This document shows positions 10,641 through 44,007 of a stretch of 61,945 nucleotides of DNA, one piece after another. The translations under genes were made by a program, and so were the position numbers. The DNA lies in NCBI GenBank assembly GCA_944381165.1, contig CALWKC010000014.1, positions 1-61,945 of the forward strand, written 5' to 3'. Under the pieces are notes generated by a model. It saw only the letters and a program-made list of their open reading frames with translations. It did no database searches and was not told where the DNA came from. Source of the stretch: an uncultured Lachnospira sp. (GTDB lineage Bacteria > Bacillota > Clostridia > Lachnospirales > Lachnospiraceae). The first letter of the stretch is position 1. The number at the start of each line of letters is the position of its first letter.

Positions 10641-11429
10641 TCATGAGAGTTTTTTTGCAATCTTTTGGAGAAGGTCAATAATTTTAAACAGAATTATTGA
10701 TATGATGCAAAGTATAATAATGGACATCGCGATTGGGTCCATGGAGAATATCTGGCTGTTATAAATAATAAGATAACCGAGGCCGGCTCTTGCGGCAAGA
10801 AATTCACCGATAATTACTCCGACAAGGCACAGTCCGATGTTTACCTTCATGTTGCTTATTATAGTGTTAAGCGACGCCGGGAGGACGAGCTTAGTGAGGA
10901 TTTGAAAACGGTTTCCGCCGAAGGTTTTCATAAGTTTTATTTTATCAGGGTCGGTGTCGGCAAAACTGGTATAAATATTTAAGACAGTTCCGAATATAGC
11001 TACCGAAACTGCCGTTACAATAATAGCCTTTGCGTTGTTTCCGAGCCAGACGATGAGCATTGGTGCGAGCGCTGATTTCGGAAGGCTGTTGAGCACAACC
11101 AGATAGGGCTCAAGTACGTCTGACAGAGGGGTGTACAGCCACAGCAGGAGCGCGGCACCTATACCGAATACAATAATAATTCCGAAGCTTAAAAAGGTCT
11201 CGCCCAGCGTTATGGCGGTGTGTTTAAATATACTTCCGTCCATGACCATTTTATAAAAGCATTTTGCAATTCTTGTAGGAGAGCTGAAGATAAACGCTTC
11301 AATCCAACCCAGTCTGGCAGCGGCTTCCCACAGAATAAGAAAGCCTGCAAACAGCAGAAATCTTAAAAGAGTAATTGTGGTTTTATAGCGTTTCTGTTTT
11401 TTCAGGTAAATTTTTTGCTGCTCGCTCAT
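10641..11429 (-). CDS. ABC transporter permease, SsuC/TauC/ThiX type
   Basis: A 262-residue inner-membrane permease of the BPD_transp_1 fold with about six membrane spans. The EAA loop appears around LMKTFGGNRFQILTKLVLPAS. It resembles permeases for alkanesulfonates, taurine, nitrate or pyrimidine precursors. The start at 11429 is preferred because AAGGAG lies seven bases upstream and its ATGA overlaps the ATPase stop; a start six codons earlier would overlap further without a better site. The substrate cannot be told because no binding-protein gene is adjacent. Confidence 0.82.
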   Translation of the reverse strand: MSEQQKIYLKKQKRYKTTITLLRFLLFAGFLILWEAAARLGWIEAFIFSSPTRIAKCFYKMVMDGSIFKHTAITLGETFLSFGIIIVFGIGAALLLWLYTPLSDVLEPYLVVLNSLPKSALAPMLIVWLGNNAKAIIVTAVSVAIFGTVLNIYTSFADTDPDKIKLMKTFGGNRFQILTKLVLPASLNTIISNMKVNIGLCLVGVIIGEFLAARAGLGYLIIYNSQIFSMDPIAMSIIILCIISIILFKIIDLLQKIAKKLS

Positions 11430-13414: not shown

Positions 13415-14170
13415 ATGAATATAGTTATCTGTGACAGTGATAAGGAGTATATATATTATTTAAAAAATTTAATATTAAAATCAGAAACAGTTTTAAAAAA
13501 TCCTAATAGAACTCTGTTTGTTGAATTTGCTTCAGGCAGAGCTTTGTTGAGTTATATTAAAAAGGCAAAATCTCAATGTGACGTTCTTATTATGGATATG
13601 GAGCTGTCTGATGTTGACATTGAAGAAACCGCCCGAGTATTCAGACAAAAATATACGCAGGCGGTTTTTGTGTGCTGCACAAATATCTGTAAACCGGTGG
13701 ATAATATAATAAAGTATCGTCCTTTCAGGTACTGGTATAAAGATTACGATGACAATAGGATGCAGCTTGAAGTTTCTGAACTGCTTGGAGAAGCGGAAAG
13801 AGTTGGCAGTGAGCCGGTGATTTTGGGACATAACTATAACAGACATATAAAACTTTTGCCGGAGGAAATATTGTTTATAGAGTGTTCAAAGAGGGGATGT
13901 AAAATAAATATATGTCCGCTGTACGTGGAAAATATAAAATATAAAATATGGAACACTGAAAAAAAACTTCATGAATTATACAGTGTTTTGTCTCAATATG
14001 GTTTTGAATATGCTCATAACAGCTATATTGTAAATTTGAGGTATGTTAAGAAGCTGTCGTCAGTCGAATTGGAATTCGTTAGGTTCGGACAGAATGCACC
14101 GGTGATGCTCTCTGTATCGAGGGCAAGAAAAGATGAACTCAGAAAAAAATTTGAAGAATTTAATATATAA
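13415..14170 (+). CDS. LytTR-family response regulator (orphan)
   Basis: A 251-residue regulator of the AgrA/ComE type. The receiver domain (1-125) keeps the acidic pair D7/D9 and the phosphoacceptor in LIMDMEL (Asp61), but the usual K-P motif is degenerate (RYWYKD). The LytTR DNA-binding domain (about 138-250) carries EILFIECSKRGCKI, FEYAHNSYIVNLRYVKKL and SRARKDELRKKF. A GGGGGG site precedes the start. No histidine kinase is nearby. Its stop codon touches the duplicated promoter/leader module, and it most likely controls the secreted protein, lipoproteins and ABC genes downstream. Base composition is more AT-rich than the flanks, consistent with an accessory locus. Confidence 0.85.
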   Translation: MNIVICDSDKEYIYYLKNLILKSETVLKNPNRTLFVEFASGRALLSYIKKAKSQCDVLIMDMELSDVDIEETARVFRQKYTQAVFVCCTNICKPVDNIIKYRPFRYWYKDYDDNRMQLEVSELLGEAERVGSEPVILGHNYNRHIKLLPEEILFIECSKRGCKINICPLYVENIKYKIWNTEKKLHELYSVLSQYGFEYAHNSYIVNLRYVKKLSSVELEFVRFGQNAPVMLSVSRARKDELRKKFEEFNI

Positions 14171-14337
14171 ATTTTATTACAAAAACGTCTCAAAATAATG
14201 CAAAAAGCTCCCACCTTATTGTGAAAATAAAAATATATGATATTGTGTTATAAAAGGGTTTAGTTCGGTAAAATTCAGATATGTTAAATGAGAGGTTATT
14301 ACGTATATATTTACAGCAGGAGGGGAGGTAAAAGTAT

Positions 14338-14358
14338 ATGTCATATTACATAGTGTAA
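14338..14358 (+). CDS. Possible six-codon leader peptide
   Basis: A very strong Shine-Dalgarno (AGGAGGGGAGG, 14318-14328) lies nine bases before an ATG that opens a six-codon frame, MSYYIV, then TAA. Most of the frame also lies inside an imperfect inverted repeat (TGTCATATTACA/TGTAATGACA, 14339-14363). No longer gene uses this ribosome site; the secreted protein has its own further down. A leader peptide or translation-dependent control is an inference. Confidence 0.35.
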   Translation: MSYYIV

Positions 14359-14418
14359 TGACACAGCGCAGTACATATGTATACGTTTAACATTATAAAA
14401 TCTAAGGAGGACTTTATT

Positions 14419-14850
14419 ATGGTGAATAAGGTTAAGAGGGTGTTAAAAAATACAGCTGTATTTGCGGCTGTAATGCTGCTTATCTCAGGCGGAGGAGTTT
14501 TGTCTGTAAAGGCTGCAAGAGGAGTGTCGTATGATTTTAGTTTTTCGCTTCAGTCACAGGGAGACAGGGACTGGACTTCGACAGAGGCAAAGGATACCAC
14601 GGACTGGTGCTCTATGCAGTGTACATGGTCGGAATTTCCCGGTGCGTCATACTACGCATACGCATGTGATAACTTGGAAAGATATGCAAGCAAACAGATG
14701 GTGTACTTTGAGCAGGGAACATGGGCGCTTATAGGAAACTCGATTAAGGAGAACGGCTCTGATTGGTGTAAAATTGTTGCCATAGGCGACTATATTCCTT
14801 CTGACGGCTGCGTATTTACGGGGTACTGGTATGCGGACAGCGGATTTTAG
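14419..14850 (+). CDS. Secreted cysteine/aromatic-rich protein, copy 1
   Basis: A 143-residue exported protein. The signal peptide (1 to about 32) has a basic head, a hydrophobic core and a VKA cleavage motif. The mature part (about 111 residues) begins DFSFSLQ, contains five cysteines and many Trp/Tyr, and ends GYWYADSGF. The DFSF start and GYW end recall DUF2712-type secreted proteins found beside ABC-2 transporters in Firmicutes; this is recollection, not a search. The start at 14419 follows AAGGAGG at eight bases; an in-frame ATG at 14377 lacks one and would bury the signal peptide. The last 20 bases overlap the next gene. Toxin, bacteriocin or signal roles are all possible. Confidence 0.75.
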   Translation: MVNKVKRVLKNTAVFAAVMLLISGGGVLSVKAARGVSYDFSFSLQSQGDRDWTSTEAKDTTDWCSMQCTWSEFPGASYYAYACDNLERYASKQMVYFEQGTWALIGNSIKENGSDWCKIVAIGDYIPSDGCVFTGYWYADSGF

Positions 14851-15757
14851 GAAGGGATTTCCGCTTCTGTCGTTAAGAGTAGCTGTTGTTTTTATGCTGC
14901 TGCTGTCAGCCAGCCTGCTTGCAGGCTGCGCTGAGTACGGCAGCGGTAAGGCGGAGGCGGAGTCCATTGCGGAGAATGCAATAAACGAGAATATAAAGTC
15001 GCTTGCGGAAAAAAAGATAAGCGAGACGCAGGCACAGACACAGGAGATGTCAGAGGAAGAGACAAATCGTTTCGGAGCAAAGGCAGACCCTCTTATTGGT
15101 GGATATTTCTATACGATGAATATAGAGAAAGCAGAGATTATCGAGGATAGAAACTGGTTTGAGTATGGTGATATAAGGGTTGAGGTTGTAGAGATGACGG
15201 TGGCTCAGAACATAAAGGGGATATATGAGCTGTGCGATGACAGCTACGTACATCAGAAAGTTGAAGAGCTTATAGAGTATGAGCAGACCAAGGATATAAG
15301 ACACATCGAAGCAGACGGAAGCTATCATTCAAATCCGGATAATGACAAGGATATACTTTTTATAAAATTTAAGTATAAAAACAGCGGAAAAATCCGGCAG
15401 GTGATTGACAGAAACCCCGCGTTTGTTCTTAAAAGACCAAATGGTGAGTGGAGAGGATATTCTTGTGCCTGTCTGTTAAACACATCAAGGAATGCAGGGA
15501 TTATTGGCTTAAGCGGGAGCATAGACACGTCAAAGATATGGATTGATGCGGGGGAGGAAATGGAAGTGGTATGCGCCATAGCAATCGGAAAGATAAGGGT
15601 TATGGACTCGTCGTTTGGAATGTATGACGGAGAAGACTACTATGATTTGTATCTCAGTTCCGAATATCTTAAGGGAAATGGTGCGACATCAGTTTCAGAT
15701 TTGCCATATGGAACGTATCTGCTGCCGCTTATAAAGGACGGAGAGAGGCTGTACTGA
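14831..15757 (+). CDS. Lipoprotein paralogue 1 of 4
   Basis: A 308-residue lipoprotein with a type II signal and lipobox LLAGC (Cys32), followed by a charged, probably helical linker (AESIAENAINENIKSL) and a beta-rich domain ending LYGE-like in KDGERLY. Motifs shared by all four copies are WFEYGDIR, VAQNIKGIYELCDDS, DGSYHSNPDNDKDILFIK and DSSFGMYDGEDYYDLYL. It may belong to the DUF5027 group (uncertain). The ATG lies inside the 3' end of the secreted-protein gene, in another frame, so translation is probably coupled. It is the most divergent copy in its last third. An immunity or binding role towards the secreted protein is inferred from context only. Confidence 0.8.
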   Translation: MRTADFRKGFPLLSLRVAVVFMLLLSASLLAGCAEYGSGKAEAESIAENAINENIKSLAEKKISETQAQTQEMSEEETNRFGAKADPLIGGYFYTMNIEKAEIIEDRNWFEYGDIRVEVVEMTVAQNIKGIYELCDDSYVHQKVEELIEYEQTKDIRHIEADGSYHSNPDNDKDILFIKFKYKNSGKIRQVIDRNPAFVLKRPNGEWRGYSCACLLNTSRNAGIIGLSGSIDTSKIWIDAGEEMEVVCAIAIGKIRVMDSSFGMYDGEDYYDLYLSSEYLKGNGATSVSDLPYGTYLLPLIKDGERLY

Positions 15758-15792
15758 TTAGCTGTTGGTTTACTAAGAGAGGTATCTTTACT

Positions 15793-16731
15793 ATGGAGAA
15801 TAAAAATATGCGGACAGCGGATTTTAGAAAAGGATTTCCGATTCTGTCCTTAAGAGTAGCTGTTGTTTTTATGCTGCTGCTGACAGCCGGCCTGCTTGCA
15901 GGCTGTGCTGAGTACGGCAGCGGTAAGGCGGAGGCGGAGTCCATTGCGGAGAATGCAATAAACGAGAATATAAAGTCGCTTGCGGAAAAAAAGATAAGCG
16001 AGACCCAAGAAGAGACACAGGAGATGTCAGAGGGAGAGACAAACCAATTCGGAGCAATGTATGATTCTCTTGTTAACGGATATTTCTATAACATGAATGT
16101 TGAGAAAGCAGAGATTGTCGAGGATAGAAACTGGTTTGAGTACGGAGATATAAGGGCTGAGGTTGTAGAGATGACGGTGGCTCAGAACATAAAGGGGATA
16201 TATGAGCTGTGCGACGACAGCTACGTACATCAGAAAGTTGAAGAGCTGATAGAGTATGAACAGACCAAGGATATAAGACACTTTGAAGCAGACGGAAGCT
16301 ACCATTCAAATCCCGATAATGACAAGGATATATTGTTTATAAAGGTGAGGTATAAAAACAGCGGAAATAGCCAGCAGGTGATGGATGGTTCTCCGTCGTT
16401 TGTCCTTAGAAGACCAAACGGGGAGTGGAGAGATTATGGGCGTGGCTGCTTGATGAATACAGCAAGAAACACCGGGGTTGTAAGAAATGGAAGACTTGAT
16501 GCAACAAAGGTGAAGCTTGAGGCTGGGGAGGAGGTTGAAATAGTGTATGCCATAGCAATCGGAAAGATATGGCTCATGGACTCTTCCTTTGGCAAGTATG
16601 ACGGAGAAGACTACTATGATTTGTATCTTACATCTGAATACCTTAGGGGAATGGGTTCTGTATCAGTGTCGGATTTACCATATGGTGTATATCTTTTGCC
16701 GCTTATAAAGGACGGAGAGAGGATGTACTGA
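15793..16731 (+). CDS. Lipoprotein paralogue 2 of 4
   Basis: A 312-residue lipoprotein, LLAGC lipobox, same architecture as paralogue 1. It starts MENKNMRTADF: the MRTADF segment is the same DNA that in paralogues 1 and 4 overlaps the secreted-protein stop, but here a short leader with its own GAGAGG ribosome site has replaced the upstream gene. It is followed by a 35-base spacer identical to the one before it. Its last third is nearly identical to paralogue 3 (SQQVMDGSPSFVLRRPNGEW, LMDSSFGKYDGEDYYDLYL). Confidence 0.8.
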   Translation: MENKNMRTADFRKGFPILSLRVAVVFMLLLTAGLLAGCAEYGSGKAEAESIAENAINENIKSLAEKKISETQEETQEMSEGETNQFGAMYDSLVNGYFYNMNVEKAEIVEDRNWFEYGDIRAEVVEMTVAQNIKGIYELCDDSYVHQKVEELIEYEQTKDIRHFEADGSYHSNPDNDKDILFIKVRYKNSGNSQQVMDGSPSFVLRRPNGEWRDYGRGCLMNTARNTGVVRNGRLDATKVKLEAGEEVEIVYAIAIGKIWLMDSSFGKYDGEDYYDLYLTSEYLRGMGSVSVSDLPYGVYLLPLIKDGERMY

Positions 16732-16766
16732 TTAGCTGTTGGTTTACTAAGAGAGGTATCTTTACT

Positions 16767-17705
16767 ATGGGAAATAAAAATATGCGGACAGCGGATTTTA
16801 GAAAAGGATTTCCGCTTCTGTCCTTAAGAGTAGCTGTTGTTTTTATGCTGCTGCTGACAGCCGGTCTGCTTGCAGGCTGCGCTGAGTACGGCAGCGGTAA
16901 GGCGGAGGCGGAGTCCATTGCGGAGAATGCAATAAACGAGAATATAAAGTCGCTTGCGGAAAAAAAGATAAGCGAGACGCAGGCAGAGACACAGGAGCTT
17001 TCAGAGGAAGAGACAAACCGTTTCGGAGCAAAGGCGGACCCTCTTATTGGTGGATATTTCTATACGATGAATATAGAGAAAGCGGAGATTGTCGAGGAAA
17101 GAAACTGGTTTGATTATGGAGATATAAGAGCTGAGGTTGTAGAGATGACGGTGGCTCAGAATATAAAGGGAATATATGAGCTGTGCGACGACAGTGATAT
17201 ACAGCAGAAGGTTGAAGAATTGATAGAGGAAGAACAGAGTAAAGATATTAAATTTTATGAATCTGATGGAAGCTATCATTCAAGCCCTGATAATGATAAA
17301 GACATACTGTTTATAAAGATAAAATATAAAAACAGCGGAAATAGCCAGCAGGTGATGGATGGTTCTCCGTCGTTTGTCCTTAGAAGACCAAACGGGGAAT
17401 GGAGAGCTTATTCATGTTATTGTTTGTTTAACACAGCAAGAAACACCGGGGTTGTGAGAAATGGGAGGCTTGATGCAACAAAAGTGAAGCTTGAGGCAGG
17501 GGAGGAGGTTGAAATAGTATATGCCATAGCAATCGGAAAGATATGGCTCATGGACTCTTCCTTTGGCAAGTATGACGGAGAAGACTACTATGATTTGTAT
17601 CTTACATCTGAATACCTTAGGGGAATGGGTTCTGTATCAGTGTCGGATTTACCATATGGTGTATATCTTTTGCCGCTTATAAAGGACGGAGAGAGGATGT
17701 ACTGA
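16767..17705 (+). CDS. Lipoprotein paralogue 3 of 4
   Basis: A 312-residue lipoprotein lying exactly 974 bp after paralogue 2 at both its start and stop, the mark of a gap-free tandem duplication. Its sequence is a mosaic: the first part resembles paralogue 1 (GAKADPLIGGYFYTMNIEKA), the last third is nearly identical to paralogue 2, and a short central block (DSDIQQKVEELIEEEQSKDI) is unique. This suggests gene conversion plus local diversification. It is followed directly by the second copy of the promoter module. Confidence 0.8.
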   Translation: MGNKNMRTADFRKGFPLLSLRVAVVFMLLLTAGLLAGCAEYGSGKAEAESIAENAINENIKSLAEKKISETQAETQELSEEETNRFGAKADPLIGGYFYTMNIEKAEIVEERNWFDYGDIRAEVVEMTVAQNIKGIYELCDDSDIQQKVEELIEEEQSKDIKFYESDGSYHSSPDNDKDILFIKIKYKNSGNSQQVMDGSPSFVLRRPNGEWRAYSCYCLFNTARNTGVVRNGRLDATKVKLEAGEEVEIVYAIAIGKIWLMDSSFGKYDGEDYYDLYLTSEYLRGMGSVSVSDLPYGVYLLPLIKDGERMY

Positions 17706-17902
17706 TTAGCTGTTGGTTTACTAAGATAGGTATAAATTTTATTGCAAAAACGTCTCAAAATAATGCAAAAAGCTCCCACCTTATTGTGAAAATAAAAATA
17801 TATGATATTGTGTTATAAAAGGGTTTAGTTCGGTAAAATTCAGATATGTTAAATGAGAGGTTATTACGTATATATTTACAGCAGGAGGGGAGGTAAAAGT
17901 AT

Positions 17903-17923
17903 ATGTCATATTACATAGTGTAA
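17903..17923 (+). CDS. Possible six-codon leader peptide, second copy
   Basis: Same MSYYIV frame, same AGGAGGGGAGG site and same inverted repeat as at 14338. Its identity may simply reflect recent duplication. Confidence 0.3.
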   Translation: MSYYIV

Positions 17924-17983
17924 TGACACAGCGCAGTACATATGTATACGTTTAACATTATAAAATCTAAGGAGGACTTTATT

Positions 17984-18415
17984 ATGATGAATAAGGTTAA
18001 GATGGTGTTAAAAAATACAGCTGTATTTGCAGCTGTAATGCTGCTTGTATCAGGTGGAGGAGCTTTGTCTGTAAAGGCTGCAAGAGGAGTGTCAAATGAT
18101 TTTAGTTTTGCATTGCAGTATCAGGGACATAGAGATGAGACGCCCTTAGTAGCAAAGGATACAACAGACTGGTGCTCTATGCAGTGTACATGGTCGGAAT
18201 TTCCCGGTGCGTCATACTACGCTTACGCATGTGATAATTTGGAAAGATATGCAAGTGAGAAGATGGTGTACTTTGAGCAGGGAACATGGGCGCTTATAGG
18301 AAACTCAATAGGAGAAAATGGTTCAAAATTATGTAAAATTGTTGCCATAGGCGACTATATACCTTCTGACGGCTGCGTATTTACGGGGTACTGGTATGCG
18401 GACAGCGGATTTTAG
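17984..18415 (+). CDS. Secreted cysteine/aromatic-rich protein, copy 2
   Basis: A 143-residue paralogue of the protein at 14419 with the same signal peptide, the same five cysteines and an identical tail (CVFTGYWYADSGF). Differences cluster in two short windows of the mature part: the segment after DFSF (ALQYQGHRDETPLVAKD against SLQSQGDRDWTSTEAKD) and the segment before the fourth cysteine (GENGSKLC against KENGSDWC). The flanking DNA hardly differs. Start chosen by AAGGAGG at 17969. It overlaps lipoprotein 4 by 20 bases. Confidence 0.75.
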   Translation: MMNKVKMVLKNTAVFAAVMLLVSGGGALSVKAARGVSNDFSFALQYQGHRDETPLVAKDTTDWCSMQCTWSEFPGASYYAYACDNLERYASEKMVYFEQGTWALIGNSIGENGSKLCKIVAIGDYIPSDGCVFTGYWYADSGF

Positions 18416-19316
18416 GAAGGGATTTCCGTTTCTGTCCTTAAGAATAGCTGTTGTTTTTATGCTGCTGTCAGCCGGCCTGCTTGCAGGCTGCGCTGAGTAC
18501 GGCAGCGGTAAGGCGGAGGCGGAGTCCATTGCGGAGAATGTCATAAACGAGAATATAAAGTCGCTTGCGGAAAAAAAGATAAGCGAGACCCAGGCAGAGA
18601 CTCAGGAGATGTCAGAGGGAGAGACAAACCAATTCGGAGCAATGTATGATCCTCTTGTTAACGGATATTTTTACACGCTGAACATAGAGAAAGCAGAAAT
18701 TGTCGAGGATAGAAACTGGTTTGAGTATGGAGATATAAGAGCTGAGGTTGTAGAGATGACGGTTGCTCAGAACATAAAAGGGATATATGAGCTGTGCGAC
18801 GACAGCTACGTACATCAGAAGGTTGAAGAACTGATAGAGTATGAGCAGACCAAGGATATAAGACGCATCGAAGCAGACGGAAGCTACCATTCAAATCCCG
18901 ATAATGACAAGGATATATTGTTTATAAAGGTGAGGTATAAAAACAGCGGAAATAGCCAGCAGGTGATGGATGGTTCGCCGTCGTTTGTCCTTAGAAGACC
19001 AAACGGGGAATGGAGAGAATATGGGCGTTATTGTTTGTTTAATACAGCAAGAAATACCGGTGTTGTGAGAAATGGAAGGCTTGATGCAACAAAGGTGAAA
19101 CTTGAGGCTGGCGAAGAGGTTGAAATAGTGTATGCCATAGCAATCGGAAAGATATGGCTCATGGACTCGTCGTTTGGAAAGTATGACGGAGAAGACTACT
19201 ATGATTTATATCTCAGCTCCGAATATCTTAAGGGATGGGGGAGCACATCTGCTTCAGATTTACCTTACGGAACGTATTTGCTGCCGCTTATAAAGGACGG
19301 AGAGAGGCTGTACTGA
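18396..19316 (+). CDS. Lipoprotein paralogue 4 of 4
   Basis: A 306-residue lipoprotein, LLAGC lipobox, starting inside the end of the second secreted-protein gene exactly as paralogue 1 does. The first half resembles paralogue 2 (GAMYDPLVNGYFYTLNIEKA) and the end resembles paralogue 1 (YLSSEYLKG, GTYLLPLIKDGERLY). Only 42 bases separate it from the first ABC permease gene, so the two are probably co-transcribed. Confidence 0.8.
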   Translation: MRTADFRKGFPFLSLRIAVVFMLLSAGLLAGCAEYGSGKAEAESIAENVINENIKSLAEKKISETQAETQEMSEGETNQFGAMYDPLVNGYFYTLNIEKAEIVEDRNWFEYGDIRAEVVEMTVAQNIKGIYELCDDSYVHQKVEELIEYEQTKDIRRIEADGSYHSNPDNDKDILFIKVRYKNSGNSQQVMDGSPSFVLRRPNGEWREYGRYCLFNTARNTGVVRNGRLDATKVKLEAGEEVEIVYAIAIGKIWLMDSSFGKYDGEDYYDLYLSSEYLKGWGSTSASDLPYGTYLLPLIKDGERLY

Positions 19317-19358
19317 CTGCGGCTTTGATGATTTTTAAAAGTATAAACAAGGAGAAGT

Positions 19359-20174
19359 ATGAGCAGAATTATTAAAATTGAGTTGGAGAGGGCTTTCAGA
19401 AGCAAAGGTTTGCTGCTGTCGCTGCTCGTTGGATTTTGTATTGCGATAGTACATTTTATTTTAAGGGTAATTCCGGCGCGAAATGCGGGAATATTATCCG
19501 GATTTACAGCCGGAATAACATCATACCCTACGTCTGTGTTCAATTATTTTATGATGGCAGACTCACTGTCTCCTTATGGAACGCTGTTTTTAAATATTTT
19601 TCCTATATTGGCGACTATACCTTTTGCTGTGTCATATCATGAAGACAGAAAGGGATTTGTAAAATCGCTGTACATAAGATGTGAAAAGTGGAAATATTTG
19701 ACGGCAAAGTACATAGCTGTATTTTTGTCCGGAGGCACTGCTGTTGTTCTGCCGATATTGCTGAATCTGATACTGACTGCATGTATGCTGCCGTCGCTTG
19801 TACCGGTGCCAAACAGCCGTTTTATCGGAGGCGGAGACGCGTTTATGAAAGATATATTTTATTCTCAGCCATATTTATATATGCTGATATATCTGATTAT
19901 TTGTTTTATTTACGGAGGTATTTTTGCATCTCTTGGATTAGCATGCACAACATTTTTTGATTATGCATTTTTTATTATAATATTTCCGTTTGGAATATAT
20001 TACGGCTTGAAATTATTTTCACAGGCTTTGAAAATACAGATTGCGCCTGCTGATTTGTTGTATATGTGCAGAAGCGGAGTGACGGGAACGATTATTTTGG
20101 CGGAAGCGCTTATTATAGGCGTAACTGCGGCAGCATTTTTTATGTGGAGAGGGATAAAAAATGATATTTTCTAA
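19359..20174 (+). CDS. ABC-2 type membrane protein
   Basis: A 271-residue polytopic protein with about six membrane spans and an ABC-2 permease look: a basic N-terminal amphipathic segment (RIIKIELERAFRSKG), a first span, a large loop and paired spans. AAGGAG precedes the start. It sits at the head of a five-gene cluster ending in an ATPase. It probably exports or extracts a peptide or lipid-linked substrate related to the secreted proteins; this is inferred from position. The next gene overlaps its last 14 bases. Confidence 0.75.
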   Translation: MSRIIKIELERAFRSKGLLLSLLVGFCIAIVHFILRVIPARNAGILSGFTAGITSYPTSVFNYFMMADSLSPYGTLFLNIFPILATIPFAVSYHEDRKGFVKSLYIRCEKWKYLTAKYIAVFLSGGTAVVLPILLNLILTACMLPSLVPVPNSRFIGGGDAFMKDIFYSQPYLYMLIYLIICFIYGGIFASLGLACTTFFDYAFFIIIFPFGIYYGLKLFSQALKIQIAPADLLYMCRSGVTGTIILAEALIIGVTAAAFFMWRGIKNDIF

Positions 20175-20748
20175 GAAAGTTAATATAATTGTGTATTCAC
20201 TTGTTTTTATTGGAGCAGTTGTTGCAGCAGTTATGATTTACAGGATTAATATGATATATCCTGCTGCTGATGTAGTCACCAATGAAGAGAATGGATACGT
20301 TGAGTGGTATGGCTGTGAGATTAGGGCACTTGAATATGATGTTTACAGCTATGATGAATTTAAAGAGGCATATCCTGACAATAAGACCTTCAGTTATATT
20401 GAGGAGGAGGGCAGATATATTCAGGATTACATTGATAGTGTCGGAATTGTTGTTATGAAAGTTAATGTGAAAAATGTTACGGATTCGAGCGTGTATTTTG
20501 TTTTGCCGCAGCATGCCGAGGTTGTTACGGAGCCTCTGGTTTGGTTTAACGGTGCTTCTCCGATGAGTACTGATAATCCTCAGGAAAGTGTCGCGGCTCT
20601 TGCTCCGGGAGAGGACAAAGATTTGGTATGTCTCGGTTTTTTTGCGGATGGATTAGTATATCCGACGAAGCTTGATAAAATGAAAAGCTATGAATATAAG
20701 CTTGTTTTTTCTTTTTATCCTAAAAGAATTGAACTTATATTTAACTGA
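20161..20748 (+). CDS. Membrane-anchored relative of the lipoproteins
   Basis: A 195-residue protein with one N-terminal membrane span (about 9-28) and an outside domain. The domain follows the lipoproteins' pattern: WYGCEIRALEYDV corresponds to EYGDIRVEVVEMT, VVMKVNVKNVTDSSV to ILFIKFKYKNSG, and LAPGEDKDLVCLGF to DAGEEMEVVCAIA. So it is likely a fifth paralogue held by a span rather than a lipid. It overlaps the previous permease gene by 14 bases, suggesting it works with the transporter. Confidence 0.65.
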   Translation: MIFSKKVNIIVYSLVFIGAVVAAVMIYRINMIYPAADVVTNEENGYVEWYGCEIRALEYDVYSYDEFKEAYPDNKTFSYIEEEGRYIQDYIDSVGIVVMKVNVKNVTDSSVYFVLPQHAEVVTEPLVWFNGASPMSTDNPQESVAALAPGEDKDLVCLGFFADGLVYPTKLDKMKSYEYKLVFSFYPKRIELIFN

Positions 20749-20789
20749 ATATAATAAAAACATGTTTTTGTGTTTTCTGGAGGCTGGCA

Positions 20790-21557
20790 ATGAGGGATAA
20801 AATCGGAAAGCTGATGAGCAGGATCAATATAAGCGGTTGTTTGATAGTATATATTATTTATACTGCAGTTGTTATATGTGTTGTGACAAAAATTTGCTGC
20901 AGGAGAATCGGCACGGTTGATTATTGTATACATGATATTTTCCTTTTTGATGAATATAACTGTAAGCTTCCATTGTTGTTGGGGCAGATGATGATTTTAG
21001 TAATTATCATAAGAAATGAATTCAGGACAATGGTTATTATGAGAGTAAAGCGTGCATGGAAAATATTTATAAGAGTATTTTCTAAAATCGCAGCGACAGC
21101 ATTTGCCGTAAGTATTTTACAGGCTTGTACAGTTGCGGCAAGTTCTGTGCTTGTACCTGTGAGTATGGATTGTCAGTGGGAAAGCTATGAGGGGTATCCG
21201 TTCTATCTGGTGAGTGGAATTGTAGAAAAAACAGACTTGTCAGAGATTATTGTTTTTTATGTGTTGATTACATTTTTTACGGTAACTGTGTCAGGTACGC
21301 TTATGTCTTTATTATGGTGGCTTACGGAAACACCTGCTGTTGGATATGTTATTCTGATAATAATTTATTTCGCGGAAACGGGAGGAGCTTTTAGTAAAAA
21401 TATATTTTTTGAGAGAATTACTCTAAAGCCTGCTAATGTTTTTATGAATGGAATAAATATAAGTGATTTTATAATTTATACGATAGTTGTTATACTCGTT
21501 TTGACAGCAGTGTCAATTATAATTATTAAAAAGAAAAATTATCTCAAGCTGCATTAG
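20790..21557 (+). CDS. Membrane protein of the ABC cluster
   Basis: A 255-residue very hydrophobic protein with about six predicted spans and a short extracytoplasmic loop (VSMDCQWESYEGYPFY). GGAGG precedes the start at 20790. No named family is recognised, but the topology and operon position fit an ABC-2 permease-like subunit. Confidence 0.65.
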   Translation: MRDKIGKLMSRINISGCLIVYIIYTAVVICVVTKICCRRIGTVDYCIHDIFLFDEYNCKLPLLLGQMMILVIIIRNEFRTMVIMRVKRAWKIFIRVFSKIAATAFAVSILQACTVAASSVLVPVSMDCQWESYEGYPFYLVSGIVEKTDLSEIIVFYVLITFFTVTVSGTLMSLLWWLTETPAVGYVILIIIYFAETGGAFSKNIFFERITLKPANVFMNGINISDFIIYTIVVILVLTAVSIIIIKKKNYLKLH

Positions 21558-21593
21558 TTTTGTTTCAGGGAAAATGAAGACAATGAGATATAT

Positions 21594-22460
21594 ATGGGGG
21601 AGTTGAGTAAGTTGCATGTAATGTTTAACCAGTTAAAGCTGCATATAAGGGAGGGAATAATTGTAAAATGGTATCTTTTTCTGACTGTTATGCTTGTGAG
21701 TTTTTCTTTAAGTATGGTGTATATATTTATAGGAAACAGCGCGATAGAAAGATATTCTGACACACAGCAGCTTACATTTTTAAATGTCGTGGCATATATT
21801 TTCAGGGGAATGCAGGAGTATAATCCGGCAGAAGGAAAGGAATTTATAATTGAAGATAATTATCTGATCTGGAATGTCATGCTTGCAATAATAGTCGGAA
21901 TGTACCCTCTAAGAAATTTAAAAAAAATGGGTAAAATATCATTGTTACAGGTAAAAAACAGGTTGTGGTGGTGGCTGTCTATCTGCCTCTGGTCTGTTGT
22001 AACAGTATTTTTATACTATGTCATGGTATATATTGGAGCGTTTGTCGCTGTATTTTTAATGACATTTATAATGGAAAATGTAAATGTTTTTTCTTCGGGA
22101 TTTGATATTTTTCTTTTAAAAAGGGTTTTCGGAATTACGTATGACACAGTACCTGTTATTTTTTGGATTAAGATATTTGTATTGCCGATTTGTGCTTCGC
22201 TTGCGATTTCAGGTATGCAGGTTGCTTTATCTTTTCTTGCAGGGGAAGCGGTCGGGTATATTTCCGTGATAGCAGTGTGCATAATATCAGCGTTCAGTAT
22301 GAAGCCAATATGGATCGGAAATTGTATGATGGCAAAAAGATATATTGAGATTAATCCAAACGGCATTGGAATGGCAATACCCATTATAATATGTCTTGCC
22401 GTATGGATTGTAAGTGTCTCTGCAGGGTATATATATTTTAATAATAAAGATATTTTGTGA
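21594..22460 (+). CDS. Membrane protein of the ABC cluster
   Basis: A 288-residue polytopic protein with about six spans and a C-terminal tail ending in a basic-acid stop region (YFNNKDIL). The opening SKLHVMFNQLKLHIREG is an amphipathic basic segment like that of ABC-2 permeases. The start is uncertain: the 21594 ATG has only a weak ribosome site, and TTG 21612 or ATG 21621 are possible. It is separated from the ATPase gene by 29 bases. Confidence 0.65.
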   Translation: MGELSKLHVMFNQLKLHIREGIIVKWYLFLTVMLVSFSLSMVYIFIGNSAIERYSDTQQLTFLNVVAYIFRGMQEYNPAEGKEFIIEDNYLIWNVMLAIIVGMYPLRNLKKMGKISLLQVKNRLWWWLSICLWSVVTVFLYYVMVYIGAFVAVFLMTFIMENVNVFSSGFDIFLLKRVFGITYDTVPVIFWIKIFVLPICASLAISGMQVALSFLAGEAVGYISVIAVCIISAFSMKPIWIGNCMMAKRYIEINPNGIGMAIPIIICLAVWIVSVSAGYIYFNNKDIL

Positions 22461-22489
22461 TTATATGACTGATTTGCATGGAGGGTAAA

Positions 22490-23125
22490 ATGTATATTGA
22501 TCTGAAAAATGTAACAAAAAAATTAAAGGGAAGCGTTGTGCTTGATGACATTAATCTGCATTTTGAGGGCGGAAAGGTGTATGGGCTTAAAGGAAAAAAC
22601 GGAAGCGGAAAAACTATGCTTATGCGTGCAATATGCGGACTTATTAAGACTAAAGGGACAATAGATATTAATGGGAAAATTCTCGGTAAGGACATGTCGT
22701 TTCCGGAAAGTATAGGAGCTTTGATTGAAAATCCGGCATTTATTGCCTCGTATACCGGCAAAAAAAATCTCTCGGTACTTGCTTCCATACAGAAAAAAAT
22801 CGGCGAGGAGCAGATATGTGAGGCGATAAGAGATGTGGGGCTTGAGCCGGATGACAAGAGAACTTATCGCAAATATTCGTTGGGAATGAAACAGAGACTT
22901 GGCATTGCTGCCGCTATAATGGAAAATCCCGATATAATTATACTTGATGAGCCGATTAATGCGCTTGACGAGTCGGGTGCTCTTCAGGTGAGAGAAATTT
23001 TAAAAAAGCATAAAGAGCGCGGCGCTATAATAATCCTTGCGTGTCATGATACGGAGGAGCTTGAGTATCTGTCTGATGAGATAATTAATATTTATGAGGG
23101 GAAAATTACATCAAAGGTTTCATAG
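22490..23125 (+). CDS. ABC transporter ATP-binding protein
   Basis: A 211-residue ATPase with Walker A KGKNGSGKTM, the signature YSLGMKQRLGIAAAI, Walker B IIILDEPINALDE and switch histidine LACHDTEE. It is the short type found with peptide-export or lantibiotic-immunity permeases. The start at 22490 follows GGAGGG; the ATG four codons earlier overlaps that site. It is the last gene of the cluster and powers the three membrane proteins upstream. Confidence 0.85.
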   Translation: MYIDLKNVTKKLKGSVVLDDINLHFEGGKVYGLKGKNGSGKTMLMRAICGLIKTKGTIDINGKILGKDMSFPESIGALIENPAFIASYTGKKNLSVLASIQKKIGEEQICEAIRDVGLEPDDKRTYRKYSLGMKQRLGIAAAIMENPDIIILDEPINALDESGALQVREILKKHKERGAIIILACHDTEELEYLSDEIINIYEGKITSKVS

Positions 23126-23153
23126 CTGACAGGGGCGGAAGAGAGATATTTAT

Positions 23154-23197
23154 AAAACCGCTGAAAAGCCGAATACATACGGCTTTTCAGCGGTTTT
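23154..23197. terminator. Strong bidirectional terminator
   Basis: Arms AAAACCGCTGAAAAGCCG and CGGCTTTTCAGCGGTTTT give an 18-bp stem. It ends the ABC operon and, on the other strand, the tRNA transcript. Confidence 0.9.
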
Positions 23198-23205
23198 AAC
23201 ATAAG

Positions 23206-23278
23206 AGCTACCAGCCGGAATCGAACCGGCGACCTTCTCATTACGAGTGAGACGCTCTACCGACTGAGCCATGGTAGC
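23206..23278 (-). tRNA. tRNA-Thr (anticodon CGU)
   Basis: A full cloverleaf on the minus strand: acceptor GCTACCA/TGGTAGC, D-arm GCTCAGTCGGTAGAGC, anticodon stem TCTCA/TGAGA around loop CTCGTAA (anticodon CGU, codon ACG), and T-arm GCCGGTTCGATTCCGGC. The CCA end is not encoded. Such tRNAs often act as integration sites, but no attachment repeat or integrase is seen here. Confidence 0.95.
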
Positions 23279-38656: not shown

Positions 38657-38689
38657 TAGTACAATTAATGCAAATAACTGAAATGCTGT

Positions 38690-39002
38690 GAAAAAGAGGA
38701 GTAGCTCAAAAACACCGCAAGAGAGAGCTGTCCGCCGGCTGTAAGACGGCTTCGGAAGGTTTTGTGGCGAAGGTAGCTTTGGAGCAGTACGGCTGAAAGC
38801 GCATATGCCTGAAATCCAGGCTTTTAAAGAGCGGAGCGGGTTTGATTAAAAGCTTGCGTGTTGGCGCCGTGTAGGCCGTAACGGAGTCATTCTCGTTATC
38901 GAATGTTAGAGGATTACCGGTATTTTCCGGTGATTAAACAAAGGTGGTACCGCGTTTATACGCCCTTTGCAGTGCAATAAAAGCTCTGCAGAGGGCTTTT
39001 TT
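38690..39002 (+). promoter_or_regulatory. Valine T-box leader
   Basis: Landmarks are AGAGGAGTAGC near the start, AAGAGAGAGCTG with CCGGCTGTAAGACGG of stem I, the probable specifier GUA (38773-38775) after GCGAAG, the consensus T-box AACAAAGGTGGTACCGCG (38937-38954) and the competing terminator GCCCTTTGCAG/CTCTGCAGAGGGC plus six T (ending 39002). It should read through to valS when tRNA-Val is uncharged. The specifier assignment is tentative; the gene identity supports it. Confidence 0.9.
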
Positions 39003-43722: not shown

Positions 43723-43862
43723 GTGACGCAGCCGGAAGATTTATATCTGTCAGCAGTACCGGCTTTTTATAAGCGTGAAATTCCCGAGGAATTTCCGCAG
43801 GAAAACGTGCCGCTTGCGGCACATTTTACAACTGAATACGAAGAGTGAGTTTTGTACTCCAA

Positions 43863-44007
43863 CCTTCAGGGCAAAGTGAGACAGCAATGTCAATTCTTGA
43901 CCGGCGGTGATGTGTCTGGACAGCCAGATAATAAGTCCGCGAGCCTGATTGGCCGATTAAGTGAGAATCTTAAACCGACAGTATAGTCTGGATGAAAGAA
44001 GAAGGAG
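43863..44007 (+). promoter_or_regulatory. FMN riboswitch
   Basis: All RFN landmarks are present: CTTCAGGGCAAAGTGAGA at the 5' side, GACCGGCGGTGATG, AGTCCGCGAGCC, GTGAGAATCTTAAACCGACAG and TATAGTCTGGATGAAAGAAGAAGG at the 3' end. The P1 helix (CCTTC 43863-43867 with GAAGG 44001-44005) contains the Shine-Dalgarno of ribU, so FMN binding should block translation directly without a separate expression platform. Confidence 0.95.

What the first reader, a model, noticed from the sequence alone, without database searches (positions are those of the whole stretch)
13415..23125. Candidate new LytTR-controlled secreted-protein/lipoprotein-array/ABC system
Seen: an orphan LytTR regulator, two copies of a secreted five-cysteine, Trp/Tyr-rich protein (about 111 mature residues), four lipoproteins of one family, a fifth relative on a membrane anchor, three membrane proteins and one ATPase, all on the same strand and ended by a strong terminator. 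Known: AgrA/ComE-type LytTR regulators, secreted small proteins and ABC-2 exporters together mark bacteriocin, peptide-signal or immunity loci. Inference: the secreted protein is a toxin, bacteriocin or signal, and the lipoproteins and ABC unit give immunity or export. The Sec signal peptide means the ABC unit is not needed to secrete it, which favours immunity or expulsion. The multi-copy lipoprotein array with a membrane-tethered relative matches no named system I know.
Basis: partly seen in the sequence, partly recalled or inferred. Interest (0 to 1): 0.82.

Follow-up and report, generated by a model that had tools for sequence, protein, structure and literature searches.

The report
Secreted protein with paired immunity-like genes
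A bacterium carries a little-studied gene set in which a small secreted protein travels with surface lipoproteins and a membrane pump, most likely a weapon against other bacteria together with the producer's own protection, though no activity has been tested.

Summary
The genes are present and correctly placed. The secreted protein S (two copies) is a divergent relative of DUF2712: a profile of 45 non-window relatives finds it at E 4e-10, and a same-genus locus has the order RR-HK-S-S-L-P1-T-P2-P3. The system is conserved: of 28 S loci in 23 of 299 family genomes, 26 have partner genes and two end at a contig edge beside S. The reverse fails: 13 of 40 judged lipoprotein/ABC loci lack S, as expected of toxin and immunity. 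LytTR, kinase or AgrB genes lie near 11 of 28. The ATPase resembles lantibiotic-immunity LanF. S and L vary fast; the ATPase and S's WSPDS-type tail do not. The repeats look mosaic, and one related genome shows the empty site. Best reading (inferred): a Sec-secreted, folded bacteriocin-like protein with LanI/LanFEG-like self-protection. No activity was tested; S has no solved relative by sequence; fold search was off; the window lipoproteins join the DUF5027 group only weakly. No paper in the library searched names these families.

The parts
13415..14170 (+). LytTR regulator (RR) with degenerate receiver domain, no adjacent kinase
   Evidence: PF04397 27.7 bits; Response_reg below cut-off. Same-genus locus L046 and the second own-genome locus L174 have RR plus kinase before S
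14171..14418 (+). upstream region of S1, nearly all within a 253-base segment (14166-14418) that recurs before S2
   Evidence: 1 difference in 253; a LytTR-like direct repeat here is not significant (306 of 1000 shuffles as good)
14419..14850 (+). S1: Sec-type secreted DUF2712-like protein, 5 Cys, C-terminal WYADS tail (longer frame from 14377)
   Evidence: E 4.1e-10 to a profile of 45 non-window S proteins; beta-strand model, mean pLDDT 79.9, block means 83-97 over residues 41-140
14831..15757 (+). lipoprotein A (L), start overlaps the S1 end by 20 nt
   Evidence: lipobox; model: helix 40-72 then a mostly beta domain, mean pLDDT 76.9
15808..16731 (+). lipoprotein B (L); longer frame from 15793
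   Evidence: 81% identical to A
16782..17705 (+). lipoprotein C (L); longer frame from 16767; divergent patch at codons 130-190
   Evidence: patch dS 1.5-1.6 against B and D, saturated against A
17731..17983 (+). second copy of the upstream segment
17984..18415 (+). S2: second secreted DUF2712-like protein (longer frame from 17942)
   Evidence: 88% identical to S1; codons 35-60 dS 1.65 against 0.13-0.43 elsewhere; E 8.8e-10 to the 45-member profile
18396..19316 (+). lipoprotein D (L), overlaps the S2 end by 20 nt
19359..20174 (+). P1: ABC permease-like membrane protein
   Evidence: E 3.2e-71 to a profile of 94 non-window P1 proteins
20161..20748 (+). T: small membrane-tethered protein, at family level related to the lipoproteins
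   Evidence: E 1.3e-21 to a profile of 63 non-window T; T and L profiles match at 98.0%
20790..21557 (+). P2: membrane protein
   Evidence: E 1.2e-13 to the non-window P2 profile, 0.032 to the P3 profile
21594..22460 (+). P3: membrane protein
   Evidence: E 3.5e-45 to the non-window P2 profile, 9e-45 to the P3 profile; 2 of 16 aligned P2/P3 relatives hit DUF2705
22478..23125 (+). A: ABC ATPase, LanF-like, Glu at the Q-loop position
   Evidence: best NCBIfam model TIGR03740, 168.8 bits, below cut-off 309.75; Glu in 98 of 110 aligned ATPases
23153..23198 (+). strong terminator-like hairpin
   Evidence: -31.7 kcal/mol, z -12.1

Best explanation
This is a bacteriocin-like secreted-protein system with its own protection. 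S is exported by Sec as a folded beta protein, able to form disulfides, that acts on the envelope of competing Gram-positive cells (inferred). The producer protects itself in two layers: L lipoproteins on the outer membrane face bind S (variable body to variable partner), and the P1/P2/P3/A pump, perhaps helped by tethered T, removes S that reaches the membrane, possibly by holding the conserved C-terminal WSPDS-type tail, as NisFEG recognises the nisin C-terminus. Transcription is set by LytTR/agr-type regulators. Duplication and recombination of S-L units make a mosaic array. Shown: gene content, families, conservation, the one-way association, uneven divergence of the copies, an empty site. 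Inferred: toxicity, immunity, binding, tail recognition, regulation.
For: S travels with partners: 26 of 28 loci have at least one of L/T/P1/P2/P3/A within 7.5 kb (in L173 the permeases and ATPase are in the locus; distance not measured), 22 of 28 have both P1 and A, 2 are cut at a contig edge. By the Pfam DUF2712 model alone, 11 loci followed, 10 with ABC genes, 1 cut. L/T+ABC without S: 13 of 40 judged ATPase-found loci. ATPase closest to the TIGR03740 lantibiotic-protection model, Glu at Q-loop. LytTR, kinase or AgrB near 11 of 28 S loci, AgrB in 5; for scale the own genome has 14 LytTR matches in 2.57 Mb, about 8% by chance for a 15 kb stretch. Identity to the window: A 45-65%, P1 25-36%, S relatives 11-23%, L relatives 9-22%. 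S tail 0.81 against body 0.22 mean pairwise identity. Uneven divergence of the copies. Empty site in G306. NisI/NisFEG roles: PMC8538875, PMC4234265 (passages).
Against: No killing or binding data. S has no relative among solved structures by sequence. P1 relatives hit no NCBIfam model (0 of 17); the ATPase is below the TIGR03740 cut-off. dN/dS of S1/S2 and of the L copies is 0.14-0.26 over whole genes: no sign of positive selection. The profile of 57 other L proteins does not find the window lipoproteins of this array, but does give two unrelated window lipoproteins at 6e-6 and 5e-5; the link is one locus, L047, at E 3.5e-5, and a weak profile match (34.6%, E 4e-4). A LytTR site before S is not significant in the window. 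Some non-window profiles were recruited with window seeds. How S was collected favours the tail. The ATPase scan kept the best 80 of at least 583 places.
Confidence: 0.6

Rival explanations
1. A self-standing envelope-defence module: L, T and the pump remove antimicrobial peptides of hosts or competitors, and S is a secreted decoy or sensor part that soaks up or reports the peptide, not a toxin.
For: 4 of the 13 S-less judged loci have both kinase and regulator beside them (L047, L069, L072, L088), like Cpr-type resistance operons described as LanFEG-like without biosynthesis genes (PMC5786555 passages). LanF-like ATPase.
Against: S is optional for the module but was not seen without it in 26 of 26 loci that could be judged; a sensor or decoy would more likely be kept. 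Fast variation of S and L, and S copied together with L, fit partner matching better.
Confidence: 0.22
2. S is a secreted signal or ligand, and L/T/pump form its receptor or uptake system under LytTR control.
For: Regulator, kinase or AgrB genes lie near S in 11 of 28 loci; S is small and secreted.
Against: In 5 of 28 loci AgrB is present, so another signal is at hand. The ATPase is nearest to an export-type (LanF) model. 4 of 13 S-less loci keep kinase and regulator.
Confidence: 0.08
3. A surface-assembly or adhesion system: S is a wall or surface protein and L/T/pump help place it.
For: Trp/Tyr-rich beta protein; lipoprotein with helix and beta domain.
Against: No anchoring domain over a cut-off in the Pfam and NCBIfam scans of S (the SclA adhesin match is 14 bits against 400); no separate motif search was made. 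L and pump occur without S.
Confidence: 0.1

Closest known systems
LanI + LanFEG lantibiotic immunity (for example NisI/NisFEG)
   Same: surface lipoprotein(s) plus an ABC pump with a short LanF-like ATPase, next to a secreted agent and a regulator
   Different: no lanthionine biosynthesis gene among the genes of the unit; the agent is a Sec-type secreted protein of about 110 residues; three membrane proteins plus a tethered protein; no LanE/LanG model hit; no lantibiotic-lipoprotein model among the hits of A and D
Lactococcin 972 system (features recalled)
   Same: unmodified Sec-secreted bacteriocin with an ABC partner
   Different: no Lactococcin_972 hit for S; ATPase below the L_ocin_972_ABC cut-off (109.9 against 254.85 bits); lipoproteins as partner
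Cpr-type stand-alone lantibiotic resistance operons (PMC5786555 passages)
   Same: LanFEG-like pump beside two-component genes and no agent, like some S-less loci found here
   Different: the window has the secreted protein and a lipoprotein array
DUF2712 (PF10916) and DUF5027 (PF16430) protein families
   Same: relatives of S and L in these loci hit them
   Different: Pfam gives them no function, and no paper in the library searched names them

Membership tests
DUF2712 (PF10916) | score over the Pfam cut-off | tested here: not met
   window S1 and S2: no DUF2712 hit at E 1; 13 of 36 aligned S or S-like proteins match at E 0.1
DUF2712 (PF10916) | homology to relatives that carry the domain, by profile | tested here: met
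   profile of 12 S proteins without window: 7.5e-6 (S2), 1.5e-4 (S1); of 45: 4.1e-10 (S1), 8.8e-10 (S2)
DUF5027 (PF16430) | match of the window lipoproteins | tested here: inconclusive
   12 of 39 aligned L match; the table for window A shows none; not found by the 57-member profile; linked through L047 at 3.5e-5 and a 34.6% profile match
LanFEG immunity transporter | ATPase over the TIGR03740 cut-off | tested here: not met
   168.8 bits against 309.75; still the best model listed
LanFEG immunity transporter | Glu in place of Gln in the Q-loop (recalled hallmark; no paper found) | tested here: met
   Glu in the window ATPase and in 98 of 110 aligned, Gln in 10 including the window's other ABC at 11426, Ser 1, Asp 1
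LanFEG immunity transporter | LanE/LanG permease models | tested here: not met
   0 of 17 aligned P1 hit any NCBIfam model at E 0.01; window P1, P2 and P3 none at E 1
LanI lipoprotein | match to NisI/SpaI-type models (that such models are held is recalled) | tested here: not met
   none among the NCBIfam hits of lipoproteins A and D
LanI/LanFEG | confers immunity to the agent made at the locus | not testable with these tools
   needs a bench test
Lactococcin 972 bacteriocin | Lactococcin_972 model match | tested here: not met
   no such hit for S1/S2 or for 36 aligned proteins
agr-type quorum control | AgrB, kinase and LytTR regulator beside the locus | tested here: inconclusive
   the window has only the regulator; AgrB beside 5 of 28 S loci

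The most novel reading that the evidence does not exclude
A new class of folded, Sec-secreted antibacterial proteins spread over Bacillota and Coriobacteriia, built as a fast-changing body on a nearly fixed C-terminal WSPDS-type tail. The tail is the common handle for a shared LanFEG-like pump, the body is matched by a private lipoprotein, and recombination of S-lipoprotein units in arrays makes new pairs.
Probability: 0.35. Interest if true: 0.82.

Novelty: new variant of a known kind. Interest (0 to 1): 0.62.

Why it matters
It gives a testable function to families of unknown function (DUF2712, DUF5027, perhaps DUF2705) and points to a protein weapon among Lachnospiraceae and relatives that the bacteriocin models scanned here miss. 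The contrast of fixed tail and variable body predicts which part each protection layer reads, which binding assays could test.

Tried and rejected
Lactococcin 972 family: not met. A survey with PF09683 found 0 of 246 genomes, but nothing rang in the 14 controls either, so it says nothing. PADLOC: only the ATPase matched, to general ATPase models. Phages and plasmids: two S proteins tried; no match for one in phages and for the other in plasmids; the latter had one 31% match in an unannotated 5.5 kb phage record, not followed further. LytTR direct repeats upstream of S: not above shuffles in the window (306 of 1000) or L046 (340 and 356 of 1000); significant only at the second own-genome locus (1 of 1000). 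Positive selection: not seen. TMcin bacteriocins (PMC12328743; abstract, outline and passages): not alike. Searches for YolA, for agr bacteriocins and for orphan immunity: listings only, not used. Two hits of the first S1 search (G213, G158) showed no such system and were dropped. Two weak DUF2712 matches inside long frames (G092, G195) and 22 of the 45 genomes, whose matches are weaker than E 1e-9, were not followed or counted.
Full report
What is there. In order: an orphan LytTR regulator, S1, lipoproteins A, B and C, S2, lipoprotein D, membrane protein P1, tethered T, P2, P3, ATPase A and a strong hairpin. From D to A the gaps are 17 to 42 bases, with one 14-base overlap (P1/T); each S overlaps the following lipoprotein by 20 nt.

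What S is. Neither S reaches a Pfam family alone. A search of 299 family genomes with S1 gave weak hits in three other genomes; two showed no such system and one (G292) has a similar layout, lipoprotein-S-lipoprotein-S-P1-T-permease-ATPase, whose S hits DUF2712 (22.6 bits against a cut-off of 22). A genome of the same genus (G304) supplied a bridging locus: regulator, kinase, S, S, lipoprotein, P1, T, P2, P3 up to the contig end. A profile of 12 S proteins without the window hits S2 at 7.5e-6 and S1 at 1.5e-4; one of 45 hits S1 at 4.1e-10 and S2 at 8.8e-10, over 6,729 frames. AlphaFold with 36 aligned rows gives a mostly beta protein with block means of 83-97 over residues 41-140; six of the 36 rows are S-like proteins that my profile does not confirm. 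No solved relative was found by sequence; fold search was off.

The system elsewhere. A scan with nine ATPases, the window's first, kept the best 80 of at least 583 confirmed places; record titles include Lachnospiraceae, Oscillospiraceae, Clostridium, Bacilli and Coriobacteriia. By my profiles 53 of 80 have P1, A and L or T: 27 of these have S, 13 have room but no S, 13 are cut too short to judge. The other 27 lack recognisable L/T; one has an S match (L121), and six more have a small secreted protein upstream of P1 that I aligned but that is not confirmed.

The reverse test. With the S alignment, 45 of 299 genomes match at E 1e-3; I kept the 31 matches below 1e-9, in 28 loci of 23 genomes. 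At least one partner lies beside 26 of 28, both P1 and ATPase in 22; L037 and L167 end at the contig edge within 180 bases of S, and L034, L166, L171 and L172 are also cut. L173 was matched by the alignment but not by my own S profile. The alignment came from ATPase-found loci and holds the window; L040, L162 and L173 have the contig lengths of its rows L056, L077 and L108. So the Pfam search matters: 13 of 299 genomes, 11 loci followed, 10 with ABC genes, 1 cut, 2 weak matches in long frames not followed. Across the phylum 1 of 398 genomes matched, with the full system.

Direction of dependence. S was not seen without the partners, but the partners do occur without S. That fits a toxin and its immunity better than a transporter subunit. 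One locus without an S gene (L099) keeps a short frame ending in GVWSPDSV plus a few residues, E 0.052. The two nearest ATPases of the scan (L047 and L048, 69%) are S-less; L047 has regulator, kinase, L, P1, T, two membrane proteins and A.

What varies and what does not. Identity to the window is 45-65% for the ATPase, 25-36% for P1, 11-23% for S relatives and 9-22% for L relatives. Within S, five tail columns average 0.81 pairwise identity and 98 body columns 0.22 in 59 proteins, some of them near-duplicates; a W-x-[PSA]-D-type tail is in 27 of 29 S frames of typed loci, strict WSPD in 23. How S was collected favours the tail. The S of the second own-genome locus lacks it. NisFEG recognises the nisin C-terminus (PMC4234265, passages), which suggests the tail-pump idea; it is untested.

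The array. The 253 bases before S1 and S2 differ once, while S codons 35-60 have dS 1.65 and other parts 0.13-0.43. Lipoprotein C has a patch (codons 130-190) with dS 1.5-1.6 against B and D and saturated against A, while its first 55 and last 117 codons are close to B (dS 0.05 and 0.16). Whole-gene dN/dS is 0.14-0.26. This suggests recombination between old, constrained segments; no formal recombination test was run. More than one S or L per locus is seen elsewhere too (L018, L034, L046, L070, L080, L085, L092, L122).

Genome context. A single-protein search finds S in 2 of 22 genus genomes, but it also misses the second own copy, so this is a lower bound. In G306 the flanking DHH-type gene, tRNA-Thr and protease-like gene are neighbours with no system between them; other genes lie between the flanks in G316, G311, G315, G299 and G304. 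The own genome has a second, different copy of the system on contig 9 with regulator and kinase. LytTR, kinase or AgrB genes lie near 11 of 28 S loci; the only yardstick is the own genome's 14 LytTR matches in 2.57 Mb.

The lipoproteins are the weak link. Other L proteins hit DUF5027 (12 of 39), but a profile of 57 of them does not find the array's copies, only two other window lipoproteins weakly. The window profile finds L047's lipoprotein at 3.5e-5, and profile-profile gives 34.6%, E 4e-4. T fits its family (1.3e-21), and the T and L families are related (98.0%). The lipoprotein model shows an anchor, a helix and a beta-rich domain; the profile's best matches among solved structures are weak, one being the lipoprotein YjhA at E 0.018.

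Mechanism and standing. The best reading is a Sec-secreted bacteriocin-like protein with LanI/LanFEG-like protection. By family test it is not a member of LanFEG or lactococcin 972. No held paper names DUF2712, DUF5027, DUF2705 or the numbers PF10916, PF16430, PF10920; papers outside that library were not searched.

Noticed in passing
L174 (own genome contig 9, 19000-37000): A second S/L/ABC system with regulator and kinase in the same genome; about 75 bases upstream of its S frame lies a direct repeat with 21-base spacing (14 of 16 bases, 1 of 1000 shuffles as good), a candidate LytTR site.
   Followed up: partly
window 23205-23278: tRNA-Thr(CGT) lies on the strand opposite to its flanking genes, as in G299, whereas in G306, G311, G315 and G316 it lies on the same strand; the genes between the flanks differ between species.
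   Followed up: partly
L018:15563-17085 (G292 contig 15): Two S genes without an intact signal sequence, one with an in-frame stop by the search, next to intact lipoproteins and pump; possible decay towards immunity only.
   Followed up: no
window 43858-44007 and 38679-38970: FMN riboswitch before a six-helix membrane protein gene, and a T-box leader before a long synthetase-like gene.
   Followed up: no
L171 (3.8 kb contig of G009): S next to a P2/P3-like gene and a transposase-like gene, a hint of mobility.
   Followed up: no
P2/P3 family, window 20790-22460: 2 of 16 aligned P2/P3 proteins hit DUF2705 (best E 8.4e-5), which may tie that family to this system.
   Followed up: no
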